Shown: piece after piece, positions 1-62,487 of the stretch | How the letters are laid out: every line of letters begins with the position of its first letter | How positions within the stretch are numbered: position 1 is the first letter of the stretch | DNA from: Sphaerolaimus hirsutus | Lineage: Eukaryota; Nematoda; Chromadorea; Monhysterida; Sphaerolaimidae | DNA length: 64,000 nt | Assembly (NCBI GenBank): GCA_964036195.1 | Contig: OZ038459.1 | Coordinates: 15,621,206 to 15,685,205 of the forward strand | Reading direction: 5' to 3' | Position numbers and translations under genes: made by a program | The notes under the pieces: model-generated | What the model saw: the letters and a program-made list of their open reading frames with translations, nothing else | Databases searched by the model: none | What the model was told of the DNA's origin: nothing

Positions 1-370
1 CAGGGTTAAGATAAAAATGGATTTCTTGGCAGAAATTACCATGCTATCCCATTGCTCTACAGCCACTGTATGACTATATGTAACATCACAAAGTAGTGCT
101 ACTTACGTGATAAACCTGTTTATCTTGACCCATAACGACGTACGTTCCTTAGACATGTAAACCCGCTGGACAAGTAGAACGCGGACATGTAGTGGCGTCG
201 TATTGCTAGAACAAGAAAACTGTTACTTGTTACTTTTCGACATTTTTCACTTTTACTTTTTGAAGTGATGATTAGTTACAAGTAAAGTAAAAAGCATGGC
301 GCCGGGTCTGCATGTCCAGCGGGTTTACATGTCCACGGGTACAGGGTCCACAACACCCTTAATCTTCCAG

Positions 371-36690: not shown

Positions 36691-36699
36691 GTTGACAAT

Positions 36700-44861: not shown

Positions 44862-44904
44862 CTGTGGTTTGAAAGGCATGCGGTGGGGGATTTGCAATTG
44901 AGGC

Positions 44905-45001
44905 GTCTAATTCTAAAAGTCGACAAGTCCACAAAATGCGATTTTGAGTAAATCGCATTTTAAGTTTCATTTCCAATTCCAGGTCCGAGGTGCGTGTCCT
45001 T
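44905..45001. mobile_element. Truncated copy of the GTCGACAAGTCCAC element
   Basis: Identical over about 95 bases to the inverted end of 14466-15106 (GAGGCGTCTAATTCTAAAAG onward), then stops abruptly at GTGCGTGTCC/TTTAAAG, taken as the retroelement boundary. Confidence 0.7.
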
Positions 45002-45759
45002 TAAAGTACCAACCTAGGGTAGAAGTGCCAACTTCCCAACCCTAGTCTATTTTGAAAAAGAGATTTAATTTAGATGGTTTAATTAGGTATAAGCATAAAG
45101 TTTTGACTGCGGTATTTTAATTACTTCTGGTATTTGTGATTAGTTGTTAAGTTAAGTTGTATTACTGAGTCGAAATTGTTTAAAGAACCAACAAATTTAT
45201 GTAGCAAATCATGAACGAATCCACCAAAGAAAGGCAGTCAAATTGGATGTGAGAAGTGACATTTCGGACATCATGAGCGGTGGCTCAAATGTCCAGGTTG
45301 TGAGTCCTTTGCAGCTTCACTTCCATCTACAGGCCTGGTCTTTTTGGTAATTACCTTTTTATCTCATCGATGTATTTCTCATTCCAAAAGCAAAACTCCA
45401 AGTGACTGCCGTTGTCTGGTAGTCGGCGCAATTAAGTAAAACCTATTCACATGCAGTATTGCCGAGTATACTGCTGGTGATTACAAAGGTTTTGTGGGCG
45501 CGCACGTCTTCAAAATGCCATAACACTCAATCATGTGGAGCGAAAAAGCGTCTCTAAATACTAAATATAATGAGACTATCTCCTAGTTTGCGACAAAAGT
45601 CTACTGTTTGTGTAATGGTAATGACGTAGATTATAATTAAGAAATTCCTACCTGATATTTGCTACTTATAGATAGTGTTTGTGAACTAGTGTTGGGAAAA
45701 TTAAATAAAATGAAAATTTTAGGGTGTTTGCACTTGTTCAGTGCGCCTATGCCCTTACA
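45002..45759 (-). repeat. Candidate 3' LTR
   Basis: Starts TGTAAGGGCATAGG right after a purine-rich tract and runs to the junction with the truncated MITE (45001/45002). The start TG and position fit an LTR. The end reads TACTTTAAA rather than CA, and no matching copy was found upstream of gag in this window, so the call is tentative. Confidence 0.4.
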
Positions 45760-45770
45760 TGCGGCCCCCT
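45760..45770 (-). promoter_or_regulatory. Candidate polypurine tract
   Basis: AGGGGGCCGCA on the minus strand, directly before the candidate LTR start TGTAAGGG and about 170 bases past the pol stop, the expected place for plus-strand priming. Confidence 0.45.
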
Positions 45771-45939
45771 ATGCTGTCACAGGTGGCCTCACCTGTCAAC
45801 TTAAGCACTGTGAATTGTGAATGAGTCTAATAATTACACTACAAGAGAACAGGCGAGATTAACAAATTACCACATTACAAGAGAACTAACAAGCCAATGA
45901 AGCAATAAGCGAGTATGATCTAAGAATAATGGGATAATG

Positions 45940-48900
45940 CTAATTTGTGCTAATTTTTAAAGTTTGATGGGCCTGTAAGCATGCTACTGTATCTTGATCA
46001 CTAAATTCTTTGCTAGTGTCTATCAAATACCAAATGTTGACTACATGTTGTCCGGTTGTATAAGTATGTTCTAAAATCTTAAAATGCACATCATCTTTTC
46101 CATTGATCACTCGAATTGCCATGCCTGGTGGCACTGAAACCTCAATTCCAGTGGTGATCACTTGTTTTCCTTGTGGCACCAGTACCATGGGGCGCCTCGG
46201 CTTGATTTGCAATGTGTTGTTGAAGTGGTTGGTGCACACTGCAAATGTTGTCGATGCCCGTACTGCCAGCTGGTGCGGTCTGTTTGGTGTCACAACTGGA
46301 TGTGTCGTTGGCACCAGTCCCATTGTCCTCTGTCGTGGCTGTTGTTCATTTGCTGTTTCCTGTGTTTCATGGATTTCTGTTTCATACTCCATGGACCCTC
46401 CACTTGGCAGTGGTGTGGCCTTCCATTTTGATGCAGTATGGCCCAGCAATTCACTGTACAATGCACCAATTTCATCATTTTCTGGCCTTTTGTTGGCTCT
46501 GATCATTCCGATCACTTTCTTTTTGGGGTTCAATCGTAGATTGTAGCGCATTGCCCTTGGCTGGCCAGTTGGATATTTGGTCAGTACTGGCAATTCTTCA
46601 TCTTCAGATGCAGATGACTCAAGTCCACCAGTCATCATGAATGGTTTCGATTGTGATGGCACACTTGGATCTGCCTGTTTTCTTGCATTTTCATTTGTTT
46701 TCGTGGCATCCTGACTGACATCATTTGGTGGTGCCACAGCACCAGCTATTTGGTCAGGTTGCTGGGGTACTTGTTCCTCTTGCTGTACTGCTGGGTCCCC
46801 ATGTCCAAATGTTGGAAAGACATCTTCCCGTGGATGCCACATTTTGACCAGCATCATTGGAAACTTGATACTGGGTGAATCCGGTTCATTCCATTTCTGG
46901 AGATACACAGTTTTTGGTGGATCTCCTGTGAGTTTCGTGACCATGTACGGCCCAACCCACACATCTCTTGTTTTTCCAGTTTGGTCTTTGGGAATCGTAA
47001 ATGACTTCTTGAGCACCAGGCAACCCAAATGGATTTTCTGCGTATCTGCGCACTTCTTGTCATGGATTGCCTTGTTGGTGTCATTCTGTTCCTGGTTCTT
47101 GGCATTTGTATAAGCCCATATGCGGCGCATATTCACCAGCAATGTATGCATGTATGTGGGATATTGCATCATAGTCTCAAACTGTTTTGGCTTCAAATCT
47201 GCAGCCAGTGCTGTTCTTGGCAATTGTCCAAACACACACATATATGGAGACACTCCAGTGGCTGAGTGCACTGCCATTCTGTTTGCCATTAGTGCAAAAG
47301 GCAACCAGGTGGGCCAGTCATGGTGATCTAGATCACGCATGCACGCTGCCAAGAGCCCTAGCAAACTGCGGTTGGCTCTTTCCACAATGCCATTGCTTTG
47401 TGGGTGAAATGGGGCTGTTGTGATTTTCCGAATTTGGAACAGCTTTGTGATTTCTGTGAATATTTCACCTGTGAATGAGGCATGGCAATCTGATGTCATA
47501 TATGCTGGCGCACCATATTTGCAAATCCAGTTTTCTACAAGCATCTGGGCTGCTGTCTTTGCATCAGTCCTTTCAACTGCCCAGCCATCTGCCCAACGTG
47601 AGCACCTGTCAACCACCAGAAATACATAGCTGTGGCCAGAATAACTGGTTGGCAGTTCTAAATGGTCAATGTGGATCCACTCAAAAGGCTGAAGTCTTGG
47701 CTGTGTCTCGGGCATAGGCAATCGTGTCTTTGGGACAGGGCAGTTGCGTGTTTGACAGTGTGTACATGTTTTGATGTAATTGTACACATCTCGTTGCATC
47801 TCAGGCCAGTACAGGTGCTGTGCCATTAGTGACAGTACCTTACGCGCATTCAAGTGCCCGCCCACCACTGTGTCGTGATGTTCTGCCATCATTTGCATAC
47901 GCAATGTTTTTGGCACAAACACACGTATACGTTTGGCTTTTTCAGCTGGGTGAGTTGGGTTGCGCACATAAGCCAGCAAATCTGGGTAGGCAAAATGTGG
48001 CCCAAAACACGGTTTTTCGCCTTGTTCCATCTGATGGATAATTCGTTGTGTCTCTTGGTCATGTTTCTGGGCTGCTGACAGCCTGTCTCGCCAGTTGTTC
48101 AACTGAGCTGGTGTGCATTCTCCACTGTCTTGTGGTGAGCGCAGCACTGCCATGACTCTGATTGGCGCCACTTCTGGCTCTGTATTTGTAGTTTTTCTGG
48201 GTCCTTTGTATGGATCAGGAATTTCTTCATTGGGCACGTATGGTGGCAGTTTCTTCCACCATGGTCTTGGCTTTGGAATTTTGCTGTCATCCAACTCAAT
48301 CTCCATTGGTGGATTGTCAATTTTGGTCAGCAATTCGCTATCTCGTCCCGTAGGAGCTCTAGATAGAGCATCGGCCACCACATTGGTTTTCCCTGGTCTG
48401 TGTTTTACATCCAGATCATATCCTGCCAATGTCAGACAGATCCTCGTGATATACTGACTATGGCCTTTTGCGTGCATCAAATACGCTAGTGCCCTGCTGT
48501 CAGTGTACACTGTCACTTTCCTGCCCATGCAATAATGTTTGTACTTTTCCAAAATCCATGCCAATGCTTCTGCTTCTCTGATCATTGCATGAAAGTCATT
48601 GCGGTTGTCAGCAACTTGTGTTGATGCAAAGGCAATTGGTCTGATTTCTCCTGTTTCAGGTTGGCGCTGTTCAAGTACTGCACCATATCCATGTACTGGT
48701 GGACAGGCTGCATCAACTGATATAATCAGTTCCAGTTCTGGCCTGTAAAAAGCCAGCACAGGAGCTGTCACCATGGCTTTCTTGAGTGCTTCAAATGCAT
48801 TCAATCTCTCTTCTGTCCATTCAAATTCAACACTGTCCTTTGTCAGTTCTACCAATGGCTTTGCGATTATTGAATAGTTCTTTATGAATCGCCGGTAAAA

Positions 48901-51900
48901 TCCGCACATTCCGAGGAATGACTTGACACCAGTGCGATTTTGTGGCAGTGGGAAATTTTCAATGGTCTTTGTTTTGCTTTCATCTTGCTCAAGTCCATCT
49001 CCTGACAATTTGAAGCCGAGAAATATGCATTCTCCAACTCCAAATATGCACTTTTTGGCTTTGAATTTCAAGCGGTACATTCTGGCACGTTCCAGCACTG
49101 CTGTCAGATCTTGCAGGTGCTTTTCAAATGTTGGGGATGCAGTTAACAAATCATCCATGTAAGCCAGAACACTCTTGTTGATGATGGGCTCGAAAATGGT
49201 GGTGATTGCTCTTGCATAAGATGCTGGAGCTGTACTGAGTCCAAATGGCATTCTGGTGAAATGGTACAATTGACCATTGGCTACTGCAAATGCCGTCTTT
49301 TCTGCATCGTCAGGGTGCATTGGCAGCTGCCAATATGCTCCCAAGCAGTCCAGGCTACTGAAGAACTTTGGGTTCAGTTCAGCAATGCGGTCAAATATTT
49401 CTGCCTGGTCTGGTGCTGGAAATGCATCTCCTTCTGTGATGAGATTCAATTCGCGGAAGTCTTGGCATAATCTGTGTGTATTGTCCTTTTTCTTGACCAT
49501 GACAATCGCAGCACGCCATGGGCTATTTGATTTCACAATCACGCCTGATCTCAACATTGAATTCAGTTGTTCCTCAACCACCTCCCTCAAATGTGGTGGT
49601 GTTCTTCGTGGAGGCAGCTGGATTGGTCCTTTCTCACCAGTTCTGATTTGGTGATAAATATTCCCTGTGATTGTGGTCAATTCTCCATAATCTAGTGCAA
49701 AACAGTCATGGAACTGCTTCAACAGATTCTTCAATTTCTCTTTTTGTTTGTCAGTAAGCTTGTCACCAAACTCCCACACTGTCTCCAGTTTTTGCAGTCG
49801 TTCTTCCAACTGGTCACCTGTCAGGTGTTGCAGGTCAATTTCATCTGGTTTCTTGTCTGTGTGTGGCTTCTGCACATGGCTTCTGAATTCTTGATTGACA
49901 TTGTTGATTGTATCCACATGTGTGGATCTCACTATTTGTGGTGCCAATGGAATTGCTGTGCCTGCCAGCTCCATGTGACCAATACATGCACCTTTTGGTA
50001 GGCATCGATGTTGCAGTGACATGTTGTATATATCGATGCACAGCATGTCATGCCCTCCTGGCACTCTGAGGTATGGAAGTGACAATCCACGAATTTCTTC
50101 TGCTGGTTTTGGTATAAACACCAGATTTTGCTGTGGGTCACCTGACGTTAGCCCAGCAATCATGACTGAAATTCTCTTTCTGGTGTTGCTTCTGATGAAT
50201 TCCTGGTTTATCAGCTTAACTGGCCATCTGGCTGCTGGTGGTCCTTCTGTTGAAATTGAATCACCTGCTGGTCCAAGTCCAATTTGCCGTGAGCCAACCC
50301 ACACGCGGCAGGTGGCATAACAGATCGTCAGGCGCCTGAAGCGGCGCAGCAAATCACCTCCCAGCAATAGTTCGTCATTGAGGTTTTGCGCCACATAGAA
50401 TTTATGTTGCAAAGATTGTCCTCCAATGATCAGACGCACATAAATTCTTCCTGAGATGACCAGTGAGTGACCAGTGATTGATACCAGTTTGTCATTTTCT
50501 GCTAATGGTATCACTGGTCCCAATCCCAATGCATTGACAATTCTCTCATCAATCAGACTACACTGGGCGCCAGAATCTAGCAATGCTGCCAGAGTTGTGT
50601 TCGCAATGCTTGTAGCCACATACAATAAATTGTGTTTGTTGACCAGCTTCACTGATTTGGTTTGATTGATGTGTTTTTCATAAGATTGTCCATTGGCAGT
50701 TTGTTCTGATGATTCTGCCCAGGTTCTATCCACGTCATAATGGATGGTCAATTTCCCAACAGGCCTCAATATGTCATTTCCAATGATGGCTTGGTCACTC
50801 AATTCATTTGAAATGAACAGTGAATGAGTTCCATGATATCCCATTAACTGAATTTCAGCAGTTGTTATCCCTTCAATAGGAATTTCATGGCCTGTGACTG
50901 ATGTCAGATGTATCTGGGATTTTTCTGGCTCAGGCCGCAAGTCCAATGCGCTTGCTAGCCCTTTCCCAATTACACTGCATTGGGCTCCAGTGTCTAGTAT
51001 GGCATTGATTCGGTGCTTGTTGACAAGCATTGTGGTGCTTGGCATGTTCTCACTCTCTTCAGCCTCTGTGGCCGCAATCATGTTGATTGTTTCTACCGGC
51101 CTCAATTCAATGGTTTTGCCATTGATTGTGATGGTTTTTCCTCTTGTCAAAGCGGCAATAGGCCGTGGGCGGCGATTTGACCGTGTCAGGGCTTCTGAGT
51201 TTTCTGGCATTGTTTCAACAGTCACAGTTGCTGTGGTTGGCACTGGTTGATGTTGCGGGTGTCTGTTTCGGAACCTTTGGACTGCTTGGTAGCACCTTGT
51301 TAGTGTGGTTACTTGTTGCCATAACCAGTAACTGAACCTCATTGCCATGTCAAGAGCATTGTGTGTCAGTCTTGCTCTTATGGCCAATGGTAGACAGCAT
51401 TTCACAGCAATAAAGCACCAGATTGCCATTATTGGAATGACAATCAGACTGATTGCTATCTTCAGCCACTTGTGTGAGTTGGCCTCTGTAGCGCCTGTTA
51501 TCACCATGTTCTGGGCTACAATTCTGGTGTTCTCATCTGCTGTGTTCCCAGGTTGTAAACCAAGGTTTGTCAGCAACTCGTGATGTGTCTGCAGCAAATC
51601 GTTGGTATGCGCTTTCATGCCCCATTGTGGATGCTGTTTGTATGGATGCAAGCCAATTGCTTGGTTTGTTGCTGGCTCCTTTTCATTTTGATGTTGATGA
51701 ACATATGCCAGGGGGAGCCTTGGCAGGCTTTGAACTTGGTGCAGTTCTCCTGTTTTCGCAGCATATTTCACCGTGGTGTTGTGAATGTGAAATATCTGAT
51801 TGTCAACTTCTTGACATGGCACTTCAAAAGTCCATTTGATCACCATCAGGGTTGCTGGGTCTAGGAAGAATGGACCATCTTCCATTGCCGCAAACTGAAT

Positions 51901-53067
51901 GGGAATGTGCCTAGTACATTTGTCATCAGTGACATTCATTGGCAAGATGTAATATGTACCATTTGCCAGTGGCCTGCAATACCAGACATGTATCACATTG
52001 CCGGTTGTTTTGGCAGTGAGATGCTGGTGGTCCAAGATCATTTGCAGCGTTTCTGTTGGGTCAGCTTTCAGTTGGCTAACAGTGACTGCATGAATTGCCT
52101 TCATCATTTTGCAGTGATTCACCATCAGAAACTCAAAGTAGAATCTCTGAGCTTGATCAGCATGCAGCTGCCTCAAGGTGGCTTGGGCTGCAACTACATC
52201 TGATGAGGCTTTTTCTTCAGGTATTATGGTCAAGCCTGTTAGAGATGCAATTGATGTTTCATTGGTCACCACGGTTTCTACTGCGAAACCTTGGTCACTG
52301 ATGTAGAGTTGCTGACCACAATCCATTAATTCTTGTGGATTTGTGAATGTCAATGCCAATGCACCCCCTTCTGCAATCCACTGTCTTTGTAAACTGATCC
52401 CTGGGGCTGTTTTCCATGCTTCATACTGGCATTCCACAGTGGTGTTGGCTTGCCACATCAAAAGTTGATGATCTGGCAATGCACATTGGTTTTCAATGTA
52501 GCGGCACTTAGAAACATCAGTTCCTAATGTGGACCACATTTGTTTTCTGTCTGATCTCTGGTAAACTGTTGTCTGTTGCAGCGCACATTGTGTCACAATG
52601 TGGCTGATCGTTTTGCAGCATCTGAATGCTCCATGAGTTGGTAGTTCTGGTGCTGGGTACCATGTTCGGTACTGGCCATTTCCAGTTCTTTCCATATCCT
52701 TTACTTTCATCCATTGCTGGTAATCGATCATTCTTTTGCATTCTATTGCTGACACTTCCACAGGTATGTACGTCACATCTTTATATGAGGTGTATAAAAA
52801 TGTTGTGTACTTTGTGTGATTTTCTTTCCACTTTGTGCACACATATGCTTTTGTCACATGCTGGTATGTGTTTTTGCGATAAAGTTTCAATGTCAGATGA
52901 CGCGGTGCTGCAAACTCTGCCGTAGATGAGAAGTGGCAGTTGATGTCTGGTGGTATCGCATAGCTGACTGTTGGTGATTGGTCCACAGGGCACACCATTG
53001 GGTCCATGGCACGGGCCCAATGAGTGCCAATCAGGAAGGCGAGTGTTGTCAGGAAACATGATGCCAT
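45940..53067 (-). CDS. pol: Ectodomain-TM-PR-PR-RT-RNase H-integrase polyprotein
   Basis: A single 2375-codon ORF starting at ATG 53067. Residues 1-20 form a signal peptide. About 21-530 is a Cys-rich, N-glycosylation-rich ectodomain; about 534-558 is a hydrophobic membrane segment. Two retropepsin-like domains follow: ILDTGAQCSVIG near 690 and LLDSGAQCSLID near 830. The RT has the catalytic YMDD near 1299; RNase H has SVDAACPPVHGYGAV and TDSRAL. The integrase has an HHCC finger (EHHDTVVGGHLNARK, CTHC) and an intact D,D,E set (IHIDHLEL, TSDCHASF, NGIVERANRS), followed by WVGPYMV. The last 90 residues resemble a degenerate dUTPase-like fold (VPQGKQVITTGIEVSVPPG), which is inference. The ectodomain has some look of mononegavirus/chuvirus-type glycoproteins but was not identified. 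Fusion of such a region in front of protease is unusual. Confidence 0.93.
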   Translation of the reverse strand: MASCFLTTLAFLIGTHWARAMDPMVCPVDQSPTVSYAIPPDINCHFSSTAEFAAPRHLTLKLYRKNTYQHVTKAYVCTKWKENHTKYTTFLYTSYKDVTYIPVEVSAIECKRMIDYQQWMKVKDMERTGNGQYRTWYPAPELPTHGAFRCCKTISHIVTQCALQQTTVYQRSDRKQMWSTLGTDVSKCRYIENQCALPDHQLLMWQANTTVECQYEAWKTAPGISLQRQWIAEGGALALTFTNPQELMDCGQQLYISDQGFAVETVVTNETSIASLTGLTIIPEEKASSDVVAAQATLRQLHADQAQRFYFEFLMVNHCKMMKAIHAVTVSQLKADPTETLQMILDHQHLTAKTTGNVIHVWYCRPLANGTYYILPMNVTDDKCTRHIPIQFAAMEDGPFFLDPATLMVIKWTFEVPCQEVDNQIFHIHNTTVKYAAKTGELHQVQSLPRLPLAYVHQHQNEKEPATNQAIGLHPYKQHPQWGMKAHTNDLLQTHHELLTNLGLQPGNTADENTRIVAQNMVITGATEANSHKWLKIAISLIVIPIMAIWCFIAVKCCLPLAIRARLTHNALDMAMRFSYWLWQQVTTLTRCYQAVQRFRNRHPQHQPVPTTATVTVETMPENSEALTRSNRRPRPIAALTRGKTITINGKTIELRPVETINMIAATEAEESENMPSTTMLVNKHRINAILDTGAQCSVIGKGLASALDLRPEPEKSQIHLTSVTGHEIPIEGITTAEIQLMGYHGTHSLFISNELSDQAIIGNDILRPVGKLTIHYDVDRTWAESSEQTANGQSYEKHINQTKSVKLVNKHNLLYVATSIANTTLAALLDSGAQCSLIDERIVNALGLGPVIPLAENDKLVSITGHSLVISGRIYVRLIIGGQSLQHKFYVAQNLNDELLLGGDLLRRFRRLTICYATCRVWVGSRQIGLGPAGDSISTEGPPAARWPVKLINQEFIRSNTRKRISVMIAGLTSGDPQQNLVFIPKPAEEIRGLSLPYLRVPGGHDMLCIDIYNMSLQHRCLPKGACIGHMELAGTAIPLAPQIVRSTHVDTINNVNQEFRSHVQKPHTDKKPDEIDLQHLTGDQLEERLQKLETVWEFGDKLTDKQKEKLKNLLKQFHDCFALDYGELTTITGNIYHQIRTGEKGPIQLPPRRTPPHLREVVEEQLNSMLRSGVIVKSNSPWRAAIVMVKKKDNTHRLCQDFRELNLITEGDAFPAPDQAEIFDRIAELNPKFFSSLDCLGAYWQLPMHPDDAEKTAFAVANGQLYHFTRMPFGLSTAPASYARAITTIFEPIINKSVLAYMDDLLTASPTFEKHLQDLTAVLERARMYRLKFKAKKCIFGVGECIFLGFKLSGDGLEQDESKTKTIENFPLPQNRTGVKSFLGMCGFYRRFIKNYSIIAKPLVELTKDSVEFEWTEERLNAFEALKKAMVTAPVLAFYRPELELIISVDAACPPVHGYGAVLEQRQPETGEIRPIAFASTQVADNRNDFHAMIREAEALAWILEKYKHYCMGRKVTVYTDSRALAYLMHAKGHSQYITRICLTLAGYDLDVKHRPGKTNVVADALSRAPTGRDSELLTKIDNPPMEIELDDSKIPKPRPWWKKLPPYVPNEEIPDPYKGPRKTTNTEPEVAPIRVMAVLRSPQDSGECTPAQLNNWRDRLSAAQKHDQETQRIIHQMEQGEKPCFGPHFAYPDLLAYVRNPTHPAEKAKRIRVFVPKTLRMQMMAEHHDTVVGGHLNARKVLSLMAQHLYWPEMQRDVYNYIKTCTHCQTRNCPVPKTRLPMPETQPRLQPFEWIHIDHLELPTSYSGHSYVFLVVDRCSRWADGWAVERTDAKTAAQMLVENWICKYGAPAYMTSDCHASFTGEIFTEITKLFQIRKITTAPFHPQSNGIVERANRSLLGLLAACMRDLDHHDWPTWLPFALMANRMAVHSATGVSPYMCVFGQLPRTALAADLKPKQFETMMQYPTYMHTLLVNMRRIWAYTNAKNQEQNDTNKAIHDKKCADTQKIHLGCLVLKKSFTIPKDQTGKTRDVWVGPYMVTKLTGDPPKTVYLQKWNEPDSPSIKFPMMLVKMWHPREDVFPTFGHGDPAVQQEEQVPQQPDQIAGAVAPPNDVSQDATKTNENARKQADPSVPSQSKPFMMTGGLESSASEDEELPVLTKYPTGQPRAMRYNLRLNPKKKVIGMIRANKRPENDEIGALYSELLGHTASKWKATPLPSGGSMEYETEIHETQETANEQQPRQRTMGLVPTTHPVVTPNRPHQLAVRASTTFAVCTNHFNNTLQIKPRRPMVLVPQGKQVITTGIEVSVPPGMAIRVINGKDDVHFKILEHTYTTGQHVVNIWYLIDTSKEFSDQDTVACLQAHQTLKISTN

Positions 53068-53639
53068 TTCGAAGCCTGCGACGACTGATTTACGAAATGA
53101 TGATAGAAAAAGTTCAATAATAAAGTTTAAGACTCATGGCGAGTCCTGGTAAAGTTACCATTACACAATCATGATTAAGTGATACAGATTTATAATTTTA
53201 TTACATTTATTATATTAAGTCTACATAATAAGTAAATAAGTTATTGTATACCCATTTAAGCTATAAGTTCCTAAATTAAGTTGTCATATAATCTATGGGA
53301 TAAAATCTAAAATATACCTAAAATAACATTATCTACTAGCTAAATGTGCAGCTAAATATGCTAATCACAGTATACAAAGAATATTTAAGTGGTTACTAAT
53401 GAAGGAATTATAGTAAGAATAGATTTCAGTTGATTTTTGTTTGAATTGTAAAGATTTTAAAAATTTTATTTTGATTGTTTGATCAAGTGAAGTCTATTCT
53501 AAAGAATCACATTGGATCATTACTTAGAAATTTAAATCTTTGGCCGGACAAAACTGAGGAGAAATTAGAGAGGATATAAAAGTATTAAATAATATTTATG
53601 AATAATATTTCTCCCAGTTTTGTGTATGCACTATTGTGC
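53068..53639 (-). other. Spacer between helicase and pol ORFs with a strong splice acceptor
   Basis: AT-rich and non-coding. On the minus strand, CTCTAATTTCTCCTCAG ends at 53554, a good pyrimidine-AG acceptor placed between the two ORFs. This suggests the downstream ORF is expressed from a spliced mRNA. Confidence 0.45.
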
Positions 53640-56600
53640 CTACTGGCCGATTTCTTGGTTGTTTAATTCGAAAAAGTCAATTGGATTCTCTGCAGCCACA
53701 CACAATGACAGGTCATCCTTGCCCAACAATGCCTTGGCTTCAGCCACTCTGTCTTTTGTCATGATGAATGCTCCAGTTCTGGCCACTTGTTCAAACAGTT
53801 GCTTCCATCCCCTTGCAGTCTTTGTCAATGTGAACATTGGTTTGAAGTCTGTGATGATCACAATGGATCGTCTCTGCCTTGTCAGTGCCACGCACAAGCG
53901 CATCATGTTTGTCAGGTGTGTTAATTGGTTGTATTTGGTATTCATTGTCCATCCTGGGACCAGAATGATGTCTGATTCTTGAGACCCTTGTGCAATGTCA
54001 CATGTGGTCACTCTGTAGTCCAGATTTGGCATGCCCTCCTGGCTGTGGTGTTTGGCCAGCAGGCAACATCCATCTTGGAGGTCCGACTGCAGTTCTTTGT
54101 AATATGCCAGGATCCTGGTCTCAGCCACACCATTCCAGCCAGCAGCCTTGTACCATTCGCTCATGAAAGTGACGAACTGGTCCCTGGTGCGGTCACAGCG
54201 TCTGGTCACTTTGTTTCCATCAGTTGTCTGTACAACCACATCCTCCGTGTTCACATCTAGCCAGTAGATGGGTGCCAGGTACTGCTTTGTGCCATCTGGC
54301 CTTCTCTTGAACAGCAGTGGGAAACCTGGTGGCTTGGCTGCCAGGAATTCTGCTCTGGTCTGGTATTCAATGGGTGCTTCCAGGTGCCCATTGTAAATCA
54401 AATATTTCACCAGGCCTGCATGTTCTACTGAGGCCCGGTACACTTCCTTCAGTCTGAAGCGCCTTCTTCTGCCCACAATTGTGCTCACTCTCTCCAGGCC
54501 ACTTTCATTGAAAACTGATTCCATCACTCTTCTGATTGGAGTCTGCCCCAAATTTGGCTTGCCAAGTTGATATTCATCGCCAAGTAGCAAGACAATGAAG
54601 CGCCTGCTGATCCTGTCTTCACTGGTGCTCAACAAAGTCAGAAGTGCACACAGCTGCAGTTTGGTGATCTTTGTGGACTCGTCCACAACCAGCATTGAAA
54701 ATCTGCATTCTCTGAGTTTGCTCAATGCTGTGCTGGTGGTTGCACTGACAATCTGGTACTGGTTGTGCAGTGTTCTGTCCAGTGTGGCAGTCTCTTCTTC
54801 TTTTTCATCTTTGTGTTTTTTCATTTCTGCTATCCATTCTGGTGGAACTGCCTCACCTCTGTGCAGCCTGCACCCGGTGGGCATTTTGCCTTTGCGGCCC
54901 TGTTCCTGCTGTTCCATTTTGCGAGAGGTTGCCTTCAACCGGGCATGCAACCATGGGACACTGCCTGACCTGATCCATGCATCCAGGTCATCAGCTAACC
55001 GCTCCACTGCCTCATTATCTGTGGCTGTGATCAGAACCTTGGTGGCATATGGTTCTTGCCAGTGTCTGTGGAGGCCAGCTGCCAGGTGCTCCTGTATGGC
55101 CTGTATGGCCACTCTGGACTTGCCTGCACCAGCCGGGGCTCTGACTGTGATGCAGTTAACATTCACTCTCAATGCCTGCAGCACTTCGTACTGTTTTTGA
55201 TTCATGCCTTCAGGTCTTTCTGTTGGATAGTCATATTGTGTCTGGTCAATGTTGGTTGCCAGAATTTGGTTGATTTCTCTCAAGCAATTTGGCAGCAACA
55301 CTTTCATGATGGTCAACTCTGCCGCTGTCTTCCATGGGTTCATCAGTGCATACACTATATATGTGTATGTTTGCTTGTCTTGAGCATCATCTATTCTGTT
55401 GTCTGTTCTGATGCAAACTTCACTTTGGTCCATTTCGATGTGCTTTTTGAGGTAGTGAAGGGCAGTTTTGGCCAGCACTGCCACACTCAATTGCTGTTTC
55501 TTGCCATCCTGGCAGGGTGCCACAGCTGTCAGTGTCCCTGATGATTCCAGGTTTGGCTGCCTGAAATTTACTTTCACTGGTGTGCGGCTGGTCCAGGGGA
55601 TCTGGGTGTCCATTGGAATTTCAGTTCTGAATGTCAGGTATGAGAAATCCTCTGACCTCATTATGGTGAATTTGTTTGTCCATGGGGTTTCTCTGTTCCT
55701 TGGCTGATTCATCTCTTGAGTCATTTTAGCTAGATGGAATTCATCAAACAATGCACCCATTGCTTCATAAATCGACATCTGCTCTTCAAATGACTTGATG
55801 GCAGCTAGTTCATCTGCCCAATGCCAGGCCTGCCAGTACATATATTCTATCCTGGCTTCTTGGTGTTGCTGGGTTGACAACACCTTTCCATCAGCGTTGT
55901 GTTCATATCCAAAGAATGCTAGGCGCTGCAAGTCCCTGAGTCCCTCAGCTGTCCGCAGGAATGGCAGGAAAAACTGTTCTTGCAGCATCAGTGCACTGGT
56001 GGGGAATCTCACAAAGGTGTCTCTGATTGGTGGGGCAGTGTTTCTATTCCTCCAAATCTCAATTGGTGCTGTTGATGCCAAATCTGATGTCTGCCATAAC
56101 TTTTGAATGCCTTTCACGCTCGGGTATATCTGATCTTTATCTGTGATCCCTGGCATCCAAAACAATGGCTGGTTTCTTTGCAATGTGTCTTCAATCACCC
56201 TTGGAATGGTCTTGTCACAGATCCAGACCTCCTGTGTTTTCTTTCTGATCACTCTGCCCTTGCTACCTTGGTGGGCTTCACCCAACTCTCTGATTTTGCG
56301 CAGGGCATCCACAATGGGGATTACTCTTCCATCGATACTCATTTTGCCAATGATGTCTGTCAGCATCAGGATTTCACATCCATTCCACCCTGTGCCTGTG
56401 GCGTACCTGCCAATAGACAGATAATAGGTGGACACATATGTTGCCCACCTTTTCAGCCTTCTCAAAGGCACTTTGATCTGCAGCTGCACCCATTTGCCAT
56501 GTTCTATTGTCACAGTTGCCTCAGTGCCAATCAATAGTTCCCATGCAATCTTCTGCATCAGGTATCGCAGGTCCGCTGTTGCGATGTAATCAGCGTGCAC

Positions 56601-56768
56601 AATTTGCAATTCTGGGTGGATCTTTCCATCTTGCATCATTTCTTGGGCATATATGACACCATTTCTTGTTGGATTTCCATGTGGGATGAGTGCCATTTGT
56701 CGTTTGTTTGTGCCTGGTGGATTTGGATGTAACTGCCTTCTCCTCAGATCTGTCTCAAATCCAGCCAT
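53640..56768 (-). CDS. Superfamily 1 (UPF1/DNA2-like) helicase ORF of the retroelement
   Basis: The first ATG of the frame is at 56768, giving about 1042 residues; the open frame extends to 56843. The N-terminal half is unrecognised. The C-terminal half has the SF1 motif series. Motif I is APAGAGKSRVAIQA (near 55110-55150). Motif II is MLVVDEST (near 54670-54695). Motif III is LLGDEYQLGKP, the arginine-bearing step is LKEVYRASVEHAG, motif V is CDIAQGSQESDIILVP and motif VI is CVALTRQRRS. This fits a 5'-3' NTP-dependent helicase. The ORF lies between gag and pol on the same strand with no stops. Helicases are not standard parts of LTR retroelements; a role in copying or in RNA protection is inference. 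It was probably captured from a cellular or viral gene. Confidence 0.85.
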   Translation of the reverse strand: MAGFETDLRRRQLHPNPPGTNKRQMALIPHGNPTRNGVIYAQEMMQDGKIHPELQIVHADYIATADLRYLMQKIAWELLIGTEATVTIEHGKWVQLQIKVPLRRLKRWATYVSTYYLSIGRYATGTGWNGCEILMLTDIIGKMSIDGRVIPIVDALRKIRELGEAHQGSKGRVIRKKTQEVWICDKTIPRVIEDTLQRNQPLFWMPGITDKDQIYPSVKGIQKLWQTSDLASTAPIEIWRNRNTAPPIRDTFVRFPTSALMLQEQFFLPFLRTAEGLRDLQRLAFFGYEHNADGKVLSTQQHQEARIEYMYWQAWHWADELAAIKSFEEQMSIYEAMGALFDEFHLAKMTQEMNQPRNRETPWTNKFTIMRSEDFSYLTFRTEIPMDTQIPWTSRTPVKVNFRQPNLESSGTLTAVAPCQDGKKQQLSVAVLAKTALHYLKKHIEMDQSEVCIRTDNRIDDAQDKQTYTYIVYALMNPWKTAAELTIMKVLLPNCLREINQILATNIDQTQYDYPTERPEGMNQKQYEVLQALRVNVNCITVRAPAGAGKSRVAIQAIQEHLAAGLHRHWQEPYATKVLITATDNEAVERLADDLDAWIRSGSVPWLHARLKATSRKMEQQEQGRKGKMPTGCRLHRGEAVPPEWIAEMKKHKDEKEEETATLDRTLHNQYQIVSATTSTALSKLRECRFSMLVVDESTKITKLQLCALLTLLSTSEDRISRRFIVLLLGDEYQLGKPNLGQTPIRRVMESVFNESGLERVSTIVGRRRRFRLKEVYRASVEHAGLVKYLIYNGHLEAPIEYQTRAEFLAAKPPGFPLLFKRRPDGTKQYLAPIYWLDVNTEDVVVQTTDGNKVTRRCDRTRDQFVTFMSEWYKAAGWNGVAETRILAYYKELQSDLQDGCCLLAKHHSQEGMPNLDYRVTTCDIAQGSQESDIILVPGWTMNTKYNQLTHLTNMMRLCVALTRQRRSIVIITDFKPMFTLTKTARGWKQLFEQVARTGAFIMTKDRVAEAKALLGKDDLSLCVAAENPIDFFELNNQEIGQ

Positions 56769-56846
56769 GATCAATTTTCCTTCAATTAGCTCTTCAGCAA
56801 CTTGCAACTGTTCTGGGTCTGGTGGATCTGTTCTTTCTGGTGGAAT

Positions 56847-57029
56847 TTATGATTCATCATTTTCCACTGTAGTCAACTGGTCATTTCCTGTTGGGTCGTC
56901 CGTACTGGAGCATAACATATCCATTGAGCCATCAGGTTCACTGTTGTCTGCTTCTGCTGTGTCCATCTGGTCAGATTCTACTGGTACTTCTCTCCATTCA
57001 CCATTTTCTCCCAAGTCCCAATCATACAT
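56847..57029 (-). CDS. Small acidic ORF in frame with, and one stop upstream of, the helicase ORF
   Basis: ATG at 57029; 60 codons beginning MYDWDLGENGEWREVPVE and rich in Asp, Glu, Ser and Thr, ending DES and a TAA at 56846-56844. The helicase frame continues in the same reading frame after this stop. It could be a leader peptide, an N-terminal segment reached by stop readthrough, or a decayed start of the helicase ORF. No homology recognised. Confidence 0.45.
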   Translation of the reverse strand: MYDWDLGENGEWREVPVESDQMDTAEADNSEPDGSMDMLCSSTDDPTGNDQLTTVENDES

Positions 57030-57270
57030 CAGTCTGGTTTCACCACTGTATGTGTCACTTGCTGATGTCTCTGGCTGGTTGTCTGCTTGATTGTGGGATG
57101 TATTTTACTATTGTGAGAATTTGAAATTGAAATATACTAGACTTGGTATATGTTTTATGAAGACATAATTGTTGATTTGTAAATTTTTGTAGAGTTGTGT
57201 GAGAAAAGAAAGCATTTTGCCATTTTGTGACATTGGTCACAAATGGCCCATCACCAGATTGATTCCCATG

Positions 57271-58950
57271 TTACTCTGTTTCATCTGGAATCTCTTCCAG
57301 ACTCAATCCTGGATTAGTTTCTTTCAGGGCTGCCAGTACTGTTGGCAGGTCACTCTTAGCCACTGTCAGGTTGTATTCATCCACTTCAGAGTCAGATTCT
57401 GGCTCAGTGAATTCAGTGGCACACTCATGGCTGACCTGCTGGACCATTCTCGTGGCTTTGTGTTTAGTGGTCAGGTCGGAGCTCATGTCAGTGGCTTTGT
57501 CCAGATACTTATCTCTCTGGCGCCTGTCCATTTTGTCAGCATCACTGGACTGTTTTGCTTTGTCCTTTTGTGCTTCCCTTGGCACAAATCGTGGAGAGCG
57601 CTCCTTGTAACCGAAGCGCTGGTCCCGAGGCCTATTGTTGTTGACCCTGTAATTATTTCCTGGTCTGGCAGGCATTTCTGGTTTTGGTGGCATCAGCCTT
57701 CCAGCAAAATTGACTTGTTGCACATTGCTGGGTACAGGGAAGCGCCATTGGTGTGCTGGTGTTTCATCCAGCTTCACACCATCCCCGTATGTGCCAAAGC
57801 TGTTTACCAGCGCGTTGCTGGGCGCCCAGCCGAGGCCAGAGCTTCTCATTCTGGTTGCACATTCCTCTAATCGTTCAAGCATAGTCATTAGCAACTGGAA
57901 GTCACTTGGTGGCTCCAAGGATTGGAGTGATGCCAGAGCCATCAGCTCATCTGACATGCTGCAGAATATCTTTTCTGCAGTTTTCTGTGTAATTTGCTCT
58001 GCAGGAGCATTTGGGTTCAATGCACGCACCATGCGATGCACATGGTCTGCATACCTAGTGATCGGTAGATGCCCTTGTTTGGCAGCATCCAGTTCCCGCA
58101 ACATTGCATTTCTTTTTGCAGGGCTATTGAACCTGCGTTCCATGGCTTGGCGCAGTTCATGCCAGCTGGTGCGCTGTGCTGGGGACAATTCCTCATAGCA
58201 CTGCAGCGCTGGCCCTGTCAGGAATGGTGGCAGAAAGTCACACATTTCCTCTTCAGTCAGGGCCAAGGATTTTGACAGCGTGACAAAACCCTCCACAAAA
58301 ATAGCCCAGGATTGATCTGCCTGGCCTGTGAACACATTCACCCTGCGTTGCAGGTTTCCAAGGCGCATTTTCCACATCATGGTGTTTACAACATTTTTTC
58401 TGGGATCTGCAGGCGCCCTTTGGCCACCAGTTGGCACATTGGCCTGTTGCCGTTCAAACTCCGCCCTTATTTGGGCGCGAATTTCACGTGCCAAGTTTGG
58501 GGTACCCTGCTGCTGCCCAGTGCCTGTGGGCAGGGCATCACTCACATCAATTGGCTGGCCTTGCCCTGGCATGGTTACTGCATAAGTGGTTATGCCCTGC
58601 TGGCCATCACCATCTTGGTTTGGTGGCTGCTGTTGCATTTCCCTGACAATGTCTTCAGCCGTTTCCTTGACTGCTTGTCCATTCACCTCCAGCGCTTTCA
58701 GCAGCACATCTACTTTCATGTCTGCCATCACTTCTTGCAGTTCCTCTCTGATTGAATCTGTCAATGGGAGTGTCTCAAGGAGCACCACCATTGAGTTGTA
58801 TGACTCTTGCAGTGGTTTCAGATGTCTCTCCTTGTCCCTGTTTGCCTGAGTGATTAGTTTCACTGCCTCAGTCTCAGTATCTCCCTGCGAGCTGTTGGTG
58901 CCAGCCCGTGCCATTGCACCTGGCTGCTGGACAGCCAGTGCCCTCACCAT
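57271..58950 (-). CDS. gag: Retrotransposon Gag-like protein
   Basis: 559 residues from ATG 58950. The N-terminal 160 residues are polar and helical with Gln-rich stretches. About residues 205-360 match the retrotransposon gag fold: QSWAIFVEGFVTL, ALQCYEELSPAQRTSWHELR, MERRFNSPAKR, LPITRYADHVHRMV. The C-terminal third is basic (RPRDQRFGYKERSPRF), then acidic. No CCHC zinc knuckle is present, so nucleic-acid binding probably relies on the basic stretch. It assembles the particle in which reverse transcription occurs (family knowledge). It is the first ORF of the element, followed by a 241-base gap. Confidence 0.88.
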   Translation of the reverse strand: MVRALAVQQPGAMARAGTNSSQGDTETEAVKLITQANRDKERHLKPLQESYNSMVVLLETLPLTDSIREELQEVMADMKVDVLLKALEVNGQAVKETAEDIVREMQQQPPNQDGDGQQGITTYAVTMPGQGQPIDVSDALPTGTGQQQGTPNLAREIRAQIRAEFERQQANVPTGGQRAPADPRKNVVNTMMWKMRLGNLQRRVNVFTGQADQSWAIFVEGFVTLSKSLALTEEEMCDFLPPFLTGPALQCYEELSPAQRTSWHELRQAMERRFNSPAKRNAMLRELDAAKQGHLPITRYADHVHRMVRALNPNAPAEQITQKTAEKIFCSMSDELMALASLQSLEPPSDFQLLMTMLERLEECATRMRSSGLGWAPSNALVNSFGTYGDGVKLDETPAHQWRFPVPSNVQQVNFAGRLMPPKPEMPARPGNNYRVNNNRPRDQRFGYKERSPRFVPREAQKDKAKQSSDADKMDRRQRDKYLDKATDMSSDLTTKHKATRMVQQVSHECATEFTEPESDSEVDEYNLTVAKSDLPTVLAALKETNPGLSLEEIPDETE

Positions 58951-61900
58951 ACATATTAGTAGATTACTGGAAAGCGAGCTAAATTGAAATTATTTCACTA
59001 AGTATTATTGATTAAAAATGTGGGAGTTTTTGCAGTAAGTTATATAGTTTAAATAGAACATAAATAATTGGGATTGCAATTACGATTATGCATAAAAAGC
59101 AAGTGATATCTTTGCAAAACATATACCAAGTTTTGTATTTTTGTGACCAACTTGTTGTAGGGTCAGAAGACATCTTGGAGTGATCACAGATTTGTAATAA
59201 ATTTGTTATTGAAGTGCGGGAAATTTGATAAAATAGGAAATTGTTGGTTTAAATAGGTGATTTTTAGATATTTTAGTGCCTAAAATGTGAATATTTTGTA
59301 TGAAATAGGTCAATTTATTACAATAATAAAATTACAAGGTTGCAAGCCTTACTAATATAAATGCATGCTAGCGCAAATATAAAATTTGTTGAAATTTTGC
59401 TGTAAGGTGAGTGCGAATTTATATAAAATTGACATATGCAAGCCTTAAGCCAGTGCAAAATGTGGTGAAATTTGTCCTAAATTACCTAAATTTATGAGAA
59501 TGTGTTCCTATGTGAGCGCAAATTGGCATTGAATTTAAATGGAAATGATATGTGAAACCCTAAGCTAGCATAAAAGTTGTGAAATTTGGGAAAATTATAC
59601 CTAATGCAAGCATATATTTGAATAGAAATTGTATAATGACCAGGCTAGTTTGCAAATTTTATTACATAATGTGCTTATAGCAATCTATAGCACTCCATCG
59701 CATAGCAGTCTATAGCACTCCATCGCATCCCCTCCCCCAAGGGAAATACCATGCCCCAGGGTATAATGTAGGGAAAAAATGTACAAAAATTGGACATAAG
59801 GGGGAATAAAATACCTAGGAGAGTAAGCATGCAGGGTGAGGGTGTAGGCAAGCAAATAGAGGAACAATAAATCAAGTTAAATTGAAAAGGTCTCTAAATG
59901 AGTGGACAAACCAACTTGGGTCTGGGTGCAATCTGGGTGAAAAGTGGTTGAGGGGGGAAGTTTTGAGACCAAAATACCAAAGGAAATCAATCCAAAATGC
60001 AACAAAACAAAAATACAAAATGAGAAAATATATATAAAAAAATATAGAAATCAAATCAAAAAAATAAATTTAAAAAAGTCACCTAAACCAGAATAAAAAT
60101 TGAAGTGAAAAATCCCAATCCCGAAGTTCTAGATTTGAAGGTTTTTTGAGAAAATTTGGAATTTTTGAATTTTGAGAAAAAGTTAGAGTTGAGTTAAATT
60201 TATTGAATATTTTACATCACTGGATGTTTAATTGTAGTGTAGTATCCTATTTAAACCATAAAAAGTGGTTTAACATGTTTTGTCAGGATGTATCCAAAAC
60301 TTGATTTTCTCCCAAAAAGAAAAGTAATCCCCGGTCAAGCCAGAACTCACTTGTTTCTGAAATCTTGGAAACTCTTCCACATGGGGCCTCCTTTGTTTGC
60401 CTTGGGTGTTCGAGGTGTTTATGGTGTGTTTGAGTGCTGTCCTAACCACTTTTACTACTTTGAATATTTTTGAAAATATTTGTTTCCGCGCAGATTGTTC
60501 TCTGCCCAGTGAAAAAATGGTTGGAAAATTTTGGATCCCAAAAGGTGCTGAAACGAACACAACAGGTTTGTGGGTGTAAGGTGTTTAATTTCGGGTGGTT
60601 TTTACTTATGTTTTTGTTTGTTTTAGTGCCTTTGGCACTCTGCCAAGTTTGGCCGATTTTGAGAAAAATAGTCTTTTCCCGGGGGAATTTTGGTTTTGCT
60701 TATCCCTTCACAATTTTAACCCACTCACAGATCCTTGGACACTGGTTGTTGAGGCTCTCTGGCTAAAACTCCTGTTTTCTGGACTGGACTGGATTCCATT
60801 GCTTGGCTCTGCTGGACGATTTTGTGATTTTTGTTTCTCTTGTGGTTCTGCATTGAAATAAAAAGAATTATTTGTATCTACCTACCTTTTATATGTATGT
60901 CAACTGAAAAAGTTGACACATGCATATCTACACCTTTGCATTTATTTGTTGATTTGTTGCTTGAGCGCGGATGGAAAGTTGAAGGAGGGTTGGTTTTTAC
61001 TTTTGTAGTCAGAGTCAAATGTGAACAAAAAGCTGAAGTTTTAATGCCTAAATTTTGTTATCTAGGAGTGTGTGAGGAAACTAAATCATTTTTGAGGGGT
61101 TTTATTCCCAAAAGAGCACATGCTTTCAAAACTCACCCTAAAATTGGCATTATTCTAAGGTTTTTTGTTTAAAACTAAAGTTTTTACACAATGCTATTGC
61201 ATTTGGTTAGTATTTGAAAGCTGTGGGAGTTGACACAAGCTTTCATGTGTGTGTACCCAATTTCTTACCCATCCTCTCGGGTTAGAGTTGCCAGAAGCTC
61301 TCTGTGGCCTTTACTAGCTTGTATAGGGCTACTGGGTCCTGCCTATTGGCCTTTCACAAGGTGCTAGGGGGTCGACCCTTTAGTTGTGAGTCAATTAAGG
61401 TCAATCCAGCAGAGTGTGGCTTGGTAGTAATAGCTTAGAGAGGGTGGTCAGAAATAGCTATACATACATTTTTAAACTTTTAATTTAGCATTGTGTTAAA
61501 AGCTTTGGGTTTGATTCTGAGTAGTTTTTGAAGCTGATTGGAACGTTGGTTACACACTGGTTGGTTTCCTTTTCTTTGAGTTTGTTTTGTGGGTCTCAAA
61601 AAGGGGTGTACACCTCCCCTCTCGCGTTTTTTCTTCTGGGACCCTGAGGATCAAGGTGATCCGATAGAATTATTCCTTGGGTTTTTAGGTTTAAAATGAG
61701 TGGTTAAGTGTCCCTATAGGACTTACGGTTTTAAAGTTATCGTTAATTGAAGTTTTAATGTTTTGTCAGTTTTTTAGAAAAGTGCGAGTTGCGTTCAAGT
61801 TCCGCTAAAAGTTCGCGTTTAAAATATCGTTTGAAATTTACCCAGTTTTAGTTGAATTTTATTTATGGGGGGTTAATTCAAGCATTCCTTATTGACACAG

Positions 61901-62487
61901 TTCAAATTTGTTAGAATGTGGTGCCAGATAAGCTGGCTTCAAATTGGGGAAATAAGCTACAGATATGTTTAAGATGGGGGGGTCCCAACTTTTAGAATCT
62001 TGTCAATATATTTGACTGGGTTGAAGCTGCATTTCTTATCGCAAATAAACTGTGAAATAAACAGATGTGAATACTTAAGGCACTGTAAAATGTGTTGACA
62101 AATCTGTGCTTATTATGGGTGAATCACATTATTGACTTCGATAAGAATGTGCTTGCTAAATGTGTAACAGTTTTTAGGAAATTGGAGCTTTGTGAATGCT
62201 TCATTGACTGTGTTTTTAATTCGATAAATTTCTGAAAGTTGAACGATTTTGAGATGATTTTGAAAGTTGTTTTGGTGAGTTGAACAGTTTGAAATCGTTT
62301 TGAGAATACTTTTGAGAACTTATAACAGTAAAATGTCTGTAAAATGTGTAGATTTCTTCAAGAATCAAAATATCTAAATAGAAATCGAATATATTTATTT
62401 CAAGATTACCTAGTTTCCTAAAACTGTTCATATTTAAAAATCGCCCCCCCATGCTGAAACTTATCTTGTATCCAATTCCATATCCAG
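58951..62487. other. AT-rich region upstream of gag, no gene supported
   Basis: Presumed leader of the retroelement plus spacer to the + strand gene. Bases 59330-59650 hold degenerate repeats of GCAAGCCTTA and GYGCAAATT words. No copy of the candidate LTR and no clear primer-binding site were seen. Open frames at 60270-61170 lack domains and splice support. Confidence 0.45.

What the first reader, a model, noticed from the sequence alone, without database searches (positions are those of the whole stretch)
45002..58980. LTR-type retroelement with a helicase gene and a membrane ectodomain fused ahead of pol
All parts are read directly: gag, a separate SF1 helicase ORF with motifs I-VI, and one 2375-codon ORF starting with a signal peptide. 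Known Ty3/gypsy elements with env place it after pol as a separate ORF, and helicases are not normal cargo. The ORFs have no disabling stops, so this may be an active, undescribed lineage.
Basis: partly seen in the sequence, partly recalled or inferred. Interest (0 to 1): 0.92.

Follow-up and report, generated by a model that had tools for sequence, protein, structure and literature searches.

The report
Retroelement with helicase and Env-Pol fusion
This is a 23-kb virus-like jumping element, apparently of an animal genome, that carries its own helicase, encodes its envelope protein in one frame with its replication enzymes, and holds host-like genes backwards inside it; much of this layout recurs in related families of the same genome.

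Summary
LTRs are identical (760/760), the target duplication is GGACA, and the window holds a paralogous empty site. The ectodomain matches Pfam's chuvirus/mononegavirus fusion glycoprotein and is in frame ahead of two proteases, RT, RNase H and integrase; the helicase is Upf1-like SF1. It is no chimera: of 38 helicase loci counted in this genome, 29 have this env downstream on the same strand, 19 of them in frames of at least 2100 codons. Most coding parts show purifying selection. New gene order and content in a known kind. Activity is not shown.

The parts
45000..45759 (-). 3' LTR, 760 bp, 5'-TG...AA-3', identical to the 5' LTR outside the window (equivalent of 67577-68336)
44995..44999 (-). 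3' copy of the 5-bp target site duplication GGACA (the 5' copy lies beyond the window)
   Evidence: empty-site paralogue at window 15001-15005
45760..45775 (-). purine-rich stretch just before the 3' LTR, polypurine-tract-like
   Evidence: read; function inferred
45940..53067 (-). env-pol ORF, 2375 codons
   Evidence: open in relatives L021, L023, L034, and in L033 and L025 as far as fetched
51148..53067 (-). env part: signal-like N-terminus, ectodomain (6 N-glycosylation sequons, 15 Cys), TM about residues 533-565, cytoplasmic tail
   Evidence: Monjiviricetes_fusion PF24664 3.4e-10 at residues 301-439
50335..51033 (-). two tandem aspartic proteases (residues 679-768 and 811-911)
48418..49497 (-). 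reverse transcriptase and RNase H (residues 1191-1550)
   Evidence: Ty3 is the best solved match, 2.7e-90
47401..47916 (-). integrase H2C2 and catalytic core (residues 1718-1889)
53640..56807 (-). helicase ORF, Upf1-like SF1 core about residues 535-1010, unassigned N-terminal half; cut near its start in this copy by an in-frame stop
57271..58950 (-). gag ORF, 559 aa
59012..59173 (-). 53-aa single-pass membrane ORF directly upstream of gag, conserved in three other families (L029, L030, L031)
58951..64000 (-). 5' leader of the element (8.6 kb in all, continues past the window to the 5' LTR); its first 2 kb before gag are repeated in the genome
62489..62723 (+). antisense gene 1, exon-like stretch ending at a GTGAGT; protein-level similarity in L029 (67%) and L031 (56%)
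   Evidence: borders by eye
62907..63639 (+). antisense gene 1, four small candidate exons (62907-62965, 63113-63205, 63373-63453, 63553-63639); borders by eye
63832..64000 (+). antisense gene 1, exon-like stretch continuing to the equivalent of 64049; further candidate exons incl. a TM exon, and a Ly6/Quiver-like antisense gene 2, lie outside the window (L013)

Best explanation
An endogenous, retrovirus-like Ty3/gypsy-type element of about 23.3 kb, one member of a multi-family lineage in this genome. SHOWN: identical LTRs, 5-bp TSD with an empty-site paralogue, gag, an Upf1-like SF1 helicase ORF, one frame coding signal-env-TM-PR-PR-RT-RH-IN, recurrence, purifying selection on most parts, a conserved 53-aa membrane ORF, antisense exon-like stretches alike at protein level in other families. 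INFERRED: a tRNA (probably Lys) primes reverse transcription; gag, helicase and env-pol are made from spliced mRNAs that skip the 8.6-kb leader. Env-Pol enters the ER as a type I membrane polyprotein, ectodomain outside and PR-RT-RH-IN on the cytosolic side. Pol is thus brought to the budding particle by the Env tail rather than by a Gag-Pol fusion, and the proteases free it. The helicase most likely remodels the unusually long genomic RNA or its RNA:DNA hybrids; blocking of RNA decay or silencing is the alternative. The antisense genes are probably captured host surface-protein genes that keep introns because these read backwards in the genomic RNA.
For: LTRs 760/760 identical, TSD GGACA (50, 100); both flanks match the two halves of one repeat copy at window 15112-14466 and meet with a 5-bp overlap. 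RT best matched by Ty3, 2.7e-90 (9). PF24664 above its curated cutoff, 39 versus 27 bits, also in L021 over 289-597. Helicase profile against PDB: best NAM7/Upf1, 4.1e-6. Of 38 helicase loci, 29 have env within 12 kb, 29 of 29 same strand and downstream, 19 of 38 with env in a frame of at least 2100 codons. The poorly conserved linker between TM and protease stays open in the five aligned env sequences, four families, as expected if it is translated through. Omega within the family: RT-RNaseH and IN 0.03-0.22, env 0.08-0.23, helicase core 0.05-0.10. Ly6-like antisense hit at 26 of 38 helicase loci, opposite strand 26 of 26.
Against: No transcript, protein or particle evidence. Structure models of env and helicase are worthless (pLDDT 34.8 and 34.3; 101, 104). 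PF24664 was not found in L023 or L025 (3 of 5 members match, two of them 98% identical; 72, 122). 9 of 38 helicase loci have no env hit within 12 kb; L024, the 9.9 kb after one of them, has no ORF like env-pol. Four of the 33 env rows entered lie without a helicase hit, and so do five or six more rows that I did not enter there. No Ly6 hit at 12 of 38 helicase loci, 0 of 8 in the 43-46% group. No omega was computed for the antisense exons, and gene 2's exons are not less diverged than its introns. Separate expression of Pol by internal splicing is not excluded. The tRNA was identified by eye and recall. Pfam's Viral_helicase1 also matches 4 of 6 helicases (best 3.7e-5, 73), so a viral source of the helicase is open.
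Confidence: 0.75

Rival explanations
1. Same element, but Env and Pol are separate products: a splice or internal start behind the TM gives Pol alone, and the open frame across the junction is only gene order.
For: Bdelloid LTR elements typically express their ORF3s from spliced messages (PMC5408684 passages); methionines lie between TM and the first protease.
Against: The linker stays in frame in the five aligned env sequences although it is among the least conserved stretches; env sits in frames of at least 2100 codons at 19 of 38 helicase loci.
Confidence: 0.35
2. A chance chimera or assembly misjoin of a helicase gene, an endogenous viral glycoprotein and a Ty3/gypsy element.
For: Only one copy was visible in the window.
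Against: Recurrence on many contigs and in several families, TSD and empty site, purifying selection.
Confidence: 0.02
3. The helicase works against the host (suppressor or decoy of nonsense-mediated decay or RNA silencing) rather than in replication.
For: Among solved structures the core is closest to Upf1; weak silencing suppression was reported for helicases of other retrotransposons (PMC6338049 passages); a long multi-ORF RNA should be a decay target (inference).
Against: No direct evidence; selection on the core fits either role.
Confidence: 0.4
4. The antisense exons are debris of a host gene trapped once, with no function for the element.
For: The gag-only relative L039 shows interrupted remnants, and several Ly6 stretches hold stops; no Ly6 hit in the 43-46% group. 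Gene 2's exons differ by 2.0% from the C16 copy, its introns by 0.7%, and one copy has a 52-base gap in its first exon.
Against: 36-67% alike at protein level in divergent families. In gene 1 exons differ by 2.8-3.4% and introns by 4.3-5.7% from the three sister copies, my sums, with one 1-base gap in the exons against many in the introns.
Confidence: 0.3

Closest known systems
Metaviridae / Ty3-gypsy, incl. Errantivirus with env (ICTV profile PMC7879559, whole text read)
   Same: LTRs, gag, PR-RT-RH-IN order, tRNA-type PBS; RT closest to Ty3 among solved structures
   Different: Env is encoded ahead of the protease and in frame with pol, whereas the profile says Env lies downstream of integrase; helicase; about 23 kb; antisense genes
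Anakin, BEL/Pao elements of mosquitoes with a chuvirus glycoprotein (PMC7642597 passages)
   Same: Envelope from the chuvirus-type glycoprotein family
   Different: Here the pol is closest to Ty3 and env lies ahead of pol in one ORF. PMC10084718 (passages) reports Gypsy fragments beside such glycoproteins and two cases inside complete transposon borders, yet says there is no clear capture by Gypsy or Copia elements
SF1 helicases in insect LINEs and Ty1/Copia fusions (PMC5563155, PMC4686597 passages)
   Same: SF1 helicase carried by a retrotransposon; in a Jockey LINE it is also an ORF of its own beside ORF2
   Different: Those are said to be closest to virga-like and related plus-strand RNA virus helicases and sit in LINE or Copia elements; here the closest solved protein is Upf1, with a long unassigned N-terminal half, in a Ty3-type element with env. 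No direct comparison of the two was made
Bdelloid LTR elements with extra ORF3 (PMC5408684 passages)
   Same: LTR elements that captured a paramyxovirus-type fusion protein or other enzymes
   Different: The extra gene is a third ORF beside gag and pol; 'helicase' occurs once in that text and I did not see the passage
Troyka (PMC12440569, abstract and part 1 of 5 of the text)
   Same: Unusual animal LTR element
   Different: Troyka has CG...CG ends and 3-bp TSD; here TG...AA and 5 bp

Membership tests
Metaviridae / Ty3-gypsy | two LTRs flanking the internal region, TSD of 4-6 bp | tested here: met
   760/760 identical LTRs, 5-bp TSD, empty-site paralogue
Metaviridae / Ty3-gypsy | gag and pol with PR-RT-RH-IN order | tested here: met
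Metaviridae / Ty3-gypsy | RT groups with Ty3/gypsy in a phylogeny | tested here: inconclusive
   best solved match is Ty3; no tree was built
Metaviridae / Ty3-gypsy | LTR ends TG...CA (most LTR elements, PMC12440569) | tested here: not met
   5'-TG...AA-3'; taken as a variant, not as exclusion
Metaviridae with env | env downstream of integrase (PMC7879559) | tested here: not met
   env is residues 1 to about 640, ahead of PR
Metaviridae | PBS complementary to the 3' end of a tRNA | tested here: inconclusive
   TGGCTCCC three bases after the 5' LTR; a longer tRNA-complement-like stretch in the C7 copy; tRNA identity by eye and recall
Troyka | CG...CG ends, 3-bp TSD | tested here: not met
Anakin (BEL/Pao with chuvirus env) | BEL/Pao-type RT | tested here: inconclusive
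   Ty3 is the best solved match; no BEL/Pao sequence was compared
Monjiviricetes (chuvirus-type) fusion glycoprotein | match to PF24664 above the curated cutoff | tested here: met
   39 vs 27 bits; 3 of 5 members, not L023 or L025
Monjiviricetes (chuvirus-type) fusion glycoprotein | class III fusion fold (recalled) | tested here: inconclusive
   model pLDDT 34.8; no solved relative by sequence
Upf1-like SF1 helicase | SF1 core and closest solved match to Upf1-like proteins | tested here: met
   Viral_helicase1 matches 4 of 6 members more weakly
Upf1-like SF1 helicase | helicase activity | not testable with these tools
   -
Ly6/Quiver family (antisense gene 2) | PF17064 above the curated cutoff | tested here: not met
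   20.9 vs 27.3 bits, E 7.5e-4; called Ly6-like from the Cys pattern and this weak match only

The most novel reading that the evidence does not exclude
A retrovirus-like lineage of its own that packages Pol through Env instead of Gag: the polymerase is made as the cytosolic tail of a membrane fusion protein. It affords a genome over 20 kb by encoding an Upf1-like helicase, and carries host-derived surface-protein genes with their introns on the antisense strand. Gag-only and helicase-without-env relatives live beside it.
Probability: 0.35. Interest if true: 0.93.

Novelty: new variant of a known kind. Interest (0 to 1): 0.82.

Why it matters
In the Metaviridae env is said to lie after integrase (PMC7879559). 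An Env-Pol polyprotein would be a different answer to how polymerase gets into particles, and recurrence in several families makes it testable. A helicase kept under selection in a 23-kb retroelement bears on what limits the genome size of retroviruses. Antisense genes that keep introns through retrotransposition would show a route by which retroelements can carry spliced host genes.

Tried and rejected
Chimera or misjoin: rejected by recurrence and the empty site. No LTRs inside the window: true for the window, resolved by fetching the flanks. Troyka: rejected by ends and TSD. Protein searches for helicase relatives gave none (one search drew its words from the first 500 residues, before the helicase core; both scored only the roughly 8000 best candidates). 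The search with env-pol gave 5 hits with 11-24% coverage; I did not map which part they match. Viral contigs gave nothing. tRNA and Rfam scans of the window: none. Structure prediction on single sequences failed. No host name was obtained; 'animal' is an inference. The listings and passages of my paper searches showed me no Ty3/gypsy element with a helicase ORF or with env ahead of pol; I opened only a few of the papers, and the library lacks most subscription journals.

A distant group, 25 of the 71 env stretches at 24-25% identity, 22 of the 25 in open frames of 2162-2178 aa (where 69 of 1511 candidates were scored), was followed only through a 3-kb stretch of one copy (L040): env tail, a weak protease match and the start of RT in one frame, then the rest of RT and RNase H in another frame after a run of seven T. 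What lies upstream of env there could not be fetched; neither helicase query hit these loci.
Full report
What is there. Three long minus-strand ORFs code for gag (57271-58950), a 1055-aa helicase protein (53640-56807) and a 2375-codon protein (45940-53067). Pfam reads the last, from its N-terminus: Monjiviricetes_fusion (302-438, E 2.3e-9), two aspartic proteases (679-768, 811-911), RVT_1 (1191-1354), RNase H (1417-1550), integrase zinc domain (1718-1775) and core (1793-1889). The first 20 residues look like a signal peptide (by eye); the only stretch above the hydropathy cutoff is 533-565. The best solved relative of the RT region is Ty3 (2.7e-90).

True extent. No LTR pair was seen inside the window. 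Flanks of this and three sister copies showed a 760-bp repeat: 3' LTR at 45000-45759, 5' LTR at the equivalent of 67577-68336, outside the window. The two are identical, 760 of 760, begin TG and end AA, and GGACA stands directly outside both. The C4 copy has CAAAG at both ends and one mismatch in 760; the 5' LTR of the C7 copy is incomplete. The 5' and 3' flanks of the window copy match the two halves of one repeat copy in the window (14466-15005 and 15001-15112), overlapping by exactly 5 bases. So this is a precise insertion of 23.3 kb, recent if the LTRs diverge after insertion as usual. Three bases after the 5' LTR comes TGGCTCCC in all four copies; the C7 copy goes on for about 50 bases that read like the complement of a tRNA with anticodon CTT (the tRNA assignment is by eye and recall).

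Recurrence. The helicase query gave 52 stretches, which I grouped into 38 loci: 16 at 96-100%, 6 at 54-57%, 8 at 43-46%, 8 at 38-40% identity; such counts are lower bounds. Env lies within 12 kb at 29 of 38, on the same strand and downstream in 29 of 29, and in an open frame of at least 2100 codons at 19 of 38. By group, env is present at 16 of 16, 5 of 6, 4 of 8 and 4 of 8. In fetched relatives of three other families (L021, L023, L025) the frame env-PR-PR-RT-RH-IN is intact (L025 as far as fetched), with RT-RNaseH 86-92% and env 54-65% identical to the window's; gag is 40-50%. Results against a fixed module: 9 of 38 helicase loci have no env hit nearby; L024, after one of these, has no ORF of 150 aa or more like env-pol. 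Four of 33 env rows entered have no helicase, nor do five or six further rows that I left out there. Relatives L026 and L028 hold an open gag (85-86%), then only patches of helicase and env-pol, then an LTR of 84-85%: internally deleted derivatives.

Selection. By NG86 omega among same-family copies is 0.03-0.22 for RT-RNaseH and IN, 0.08-0.23 for env, 0.19-0.32 for the proteases, 0.05-0.10 for the helicase core, 0.14-0.23 for its N-terminal half except 0.72 in one pair (L002, 7 changes), and 0.17-0.60 for the C-terminal part of pol. Between families it is 0.03-0.26 where dS is not saturated, apart from 0.41 for the 55-codon helicase end against L036; many pairs are saturated.

The helicase. 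Its core (535-987) matches AAA_30, AAA_12 and AAA_11, each in 5 of 6 aligned members; Viral_helicase1 matches 4 of 6 more weakly, best 3.7e-5. A profile of the six finds yeast NAM7/Upf1 best among solved structures (4.1e-6), then human Upf1, and more weakly Sen1, Aquarius, SMUBP-2 and an ORF1ab helicase. No comparison with the virga-like helicases reported in insect retrotransposons was made. The N-terminal half matches nothing in Pfam at the cutoffs used. In this copy an in-frame stop shortens the open frame (1068 codons; 1154 in 11 of 11 other full-length copies).

The envelope. The env part alone scores 39 bits against a cutoff of 27 for Monjiviricetes_fusion; L021 matches colinearly over 289-597 (profile 300-598 of 653). 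L023 and L025 have no such match at E 0.1, though they are 53-54% identical to the window's env. No solved relative was found and the single-sequence model is useless.

A 53-aa single-pass membrane ORF (59012-59173) stands just upstream of gag in the window and in three other families; the two gag-only relatives read appear to lack most of it. In the 8.6-kb leader, on the opposite strand, lie exon-like stretches alike at protein level in L029 and L031 but not found in L030, with GT/AG-type borders read by eye. One candidate gene looks like a type I membrane protein with S/T-rich exons and a TM exon. The other is a short, Cys-rich, Ly6/Quiver-like protein with a hydrophobic tail (PF17064 E 7.5e-4, below the cutoff). 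From the three sister copies, gene 1's exons differ by 2.8-3.4% and its introns by 4.3-5.7% (my sums); gene 2's exons are not less diverged than its introns, and one copy has a 52-base gap in its first exon. No omega was computed. The Ly6-like stretch lies within 30 kb of 26 of 38 helicase loci, on the opposite strand in 26 of 26: 16 of 16, 5 of 6, 0 of 8 and 5 of 8 by group. Of 43 Ly6 loci counted, 17 have no helicase near: 12 of these adjoin leader copies on the opposite strand (two of them the gag-only relatives read), four lie 4-5 kb from env stretches on the opposite strand, one (C3:22474604) is unlinked. That introns survive because they are read backwards in the genomic RNA, and that the genes come from a host, are inferences.

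How it probably works. Spliced messages from the 5' LTR give the small membrane protein or gag, the helicase, and Env-Pol. Env-Pol inserts in the ER; its cytosolic tail is the protease-polymerase part, so Pol reaches the particle with Env. The open frame through a poorly conserved linker in the five aligned sequences is the main argument. The helicase assists copying of the long RNA, or protects it. None of these steps was shown.

Literature. ICTV's Metaviridae profile (whole text) puts Env downstream of integrase and the internal region at 3 to over 15 kb. A study of arthropod genomes (PMC10084718, passages) found Gypsy fragments beside Jingchuvirales glycoproteins and two cases within complete transposon borders, but no clear capture by Gypsy or Copia elements. 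Capture by BEL/Pao is known (PMC7642597, passages). SF1 helicases in insect LINEs and Ty1/Copia fusions are known (PMC5563155 and PMC4686597, passages). The listings and passages of my searches showed no Ty3/gypsy element with this gene order.

Noticed in passing
C6:9335732-9340300 of G000 (partly L040) and 24 similar rows: A distant, more numerous env group (24-25% identity, 25 rows, 22 in frames of 2162-2178 aa) without a helicase hit; in the one copy read, the frame changes inside RT at a run of seven T, perhaps a frameshift site or an error.
   Followed up: partly
L026, L028; further helicase-free leader copies: Two relatives with open gag and LTRs but no intact helicase or env-pol, perhaps a non-autonomous group; antisense remnants in L039 are interrupted.
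   Followed up: partly
L024 and the C13, C551, C1:22.9M and C6:25.97M helicase loci: Helicase loci with no env hit nearby: another derivative, or a family with other partners.
   Followed up: partly
L025, L037 and sister loci of the 38% group: In 7 of 7 such loci the first helicase match breaks off near residue 687 and later parts follow as separate pieces: introns or extra inserts.
   Followed up: no
window 57130-57166 and 59106-59142: A 37-nt inverted repeat (81%) whose one arm lies inside the 53-aa ORF and the other between gag and helicase, so that it encloses gag.
   Followed up: no
window 36692-40464: Large tandem array with a period of about 116 bp.
   Followed up: no
window 43512-43784 and 44598-44906, minus strand: Exon-like ORFs that look like a beta-1,3-galactosyltransferase (recalled, not searched) just beside the element's 3' end, in the same orientation.
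   Followed up: no
window 43782-43913 and 44166-44293: Two arrays of a 17-bp repeat in inverted orientation to each other.
   Followed up: no
window 272-577, plus strand: ORF that looks like a galactokinase exon (recalled, not searched).
   Followed up: no
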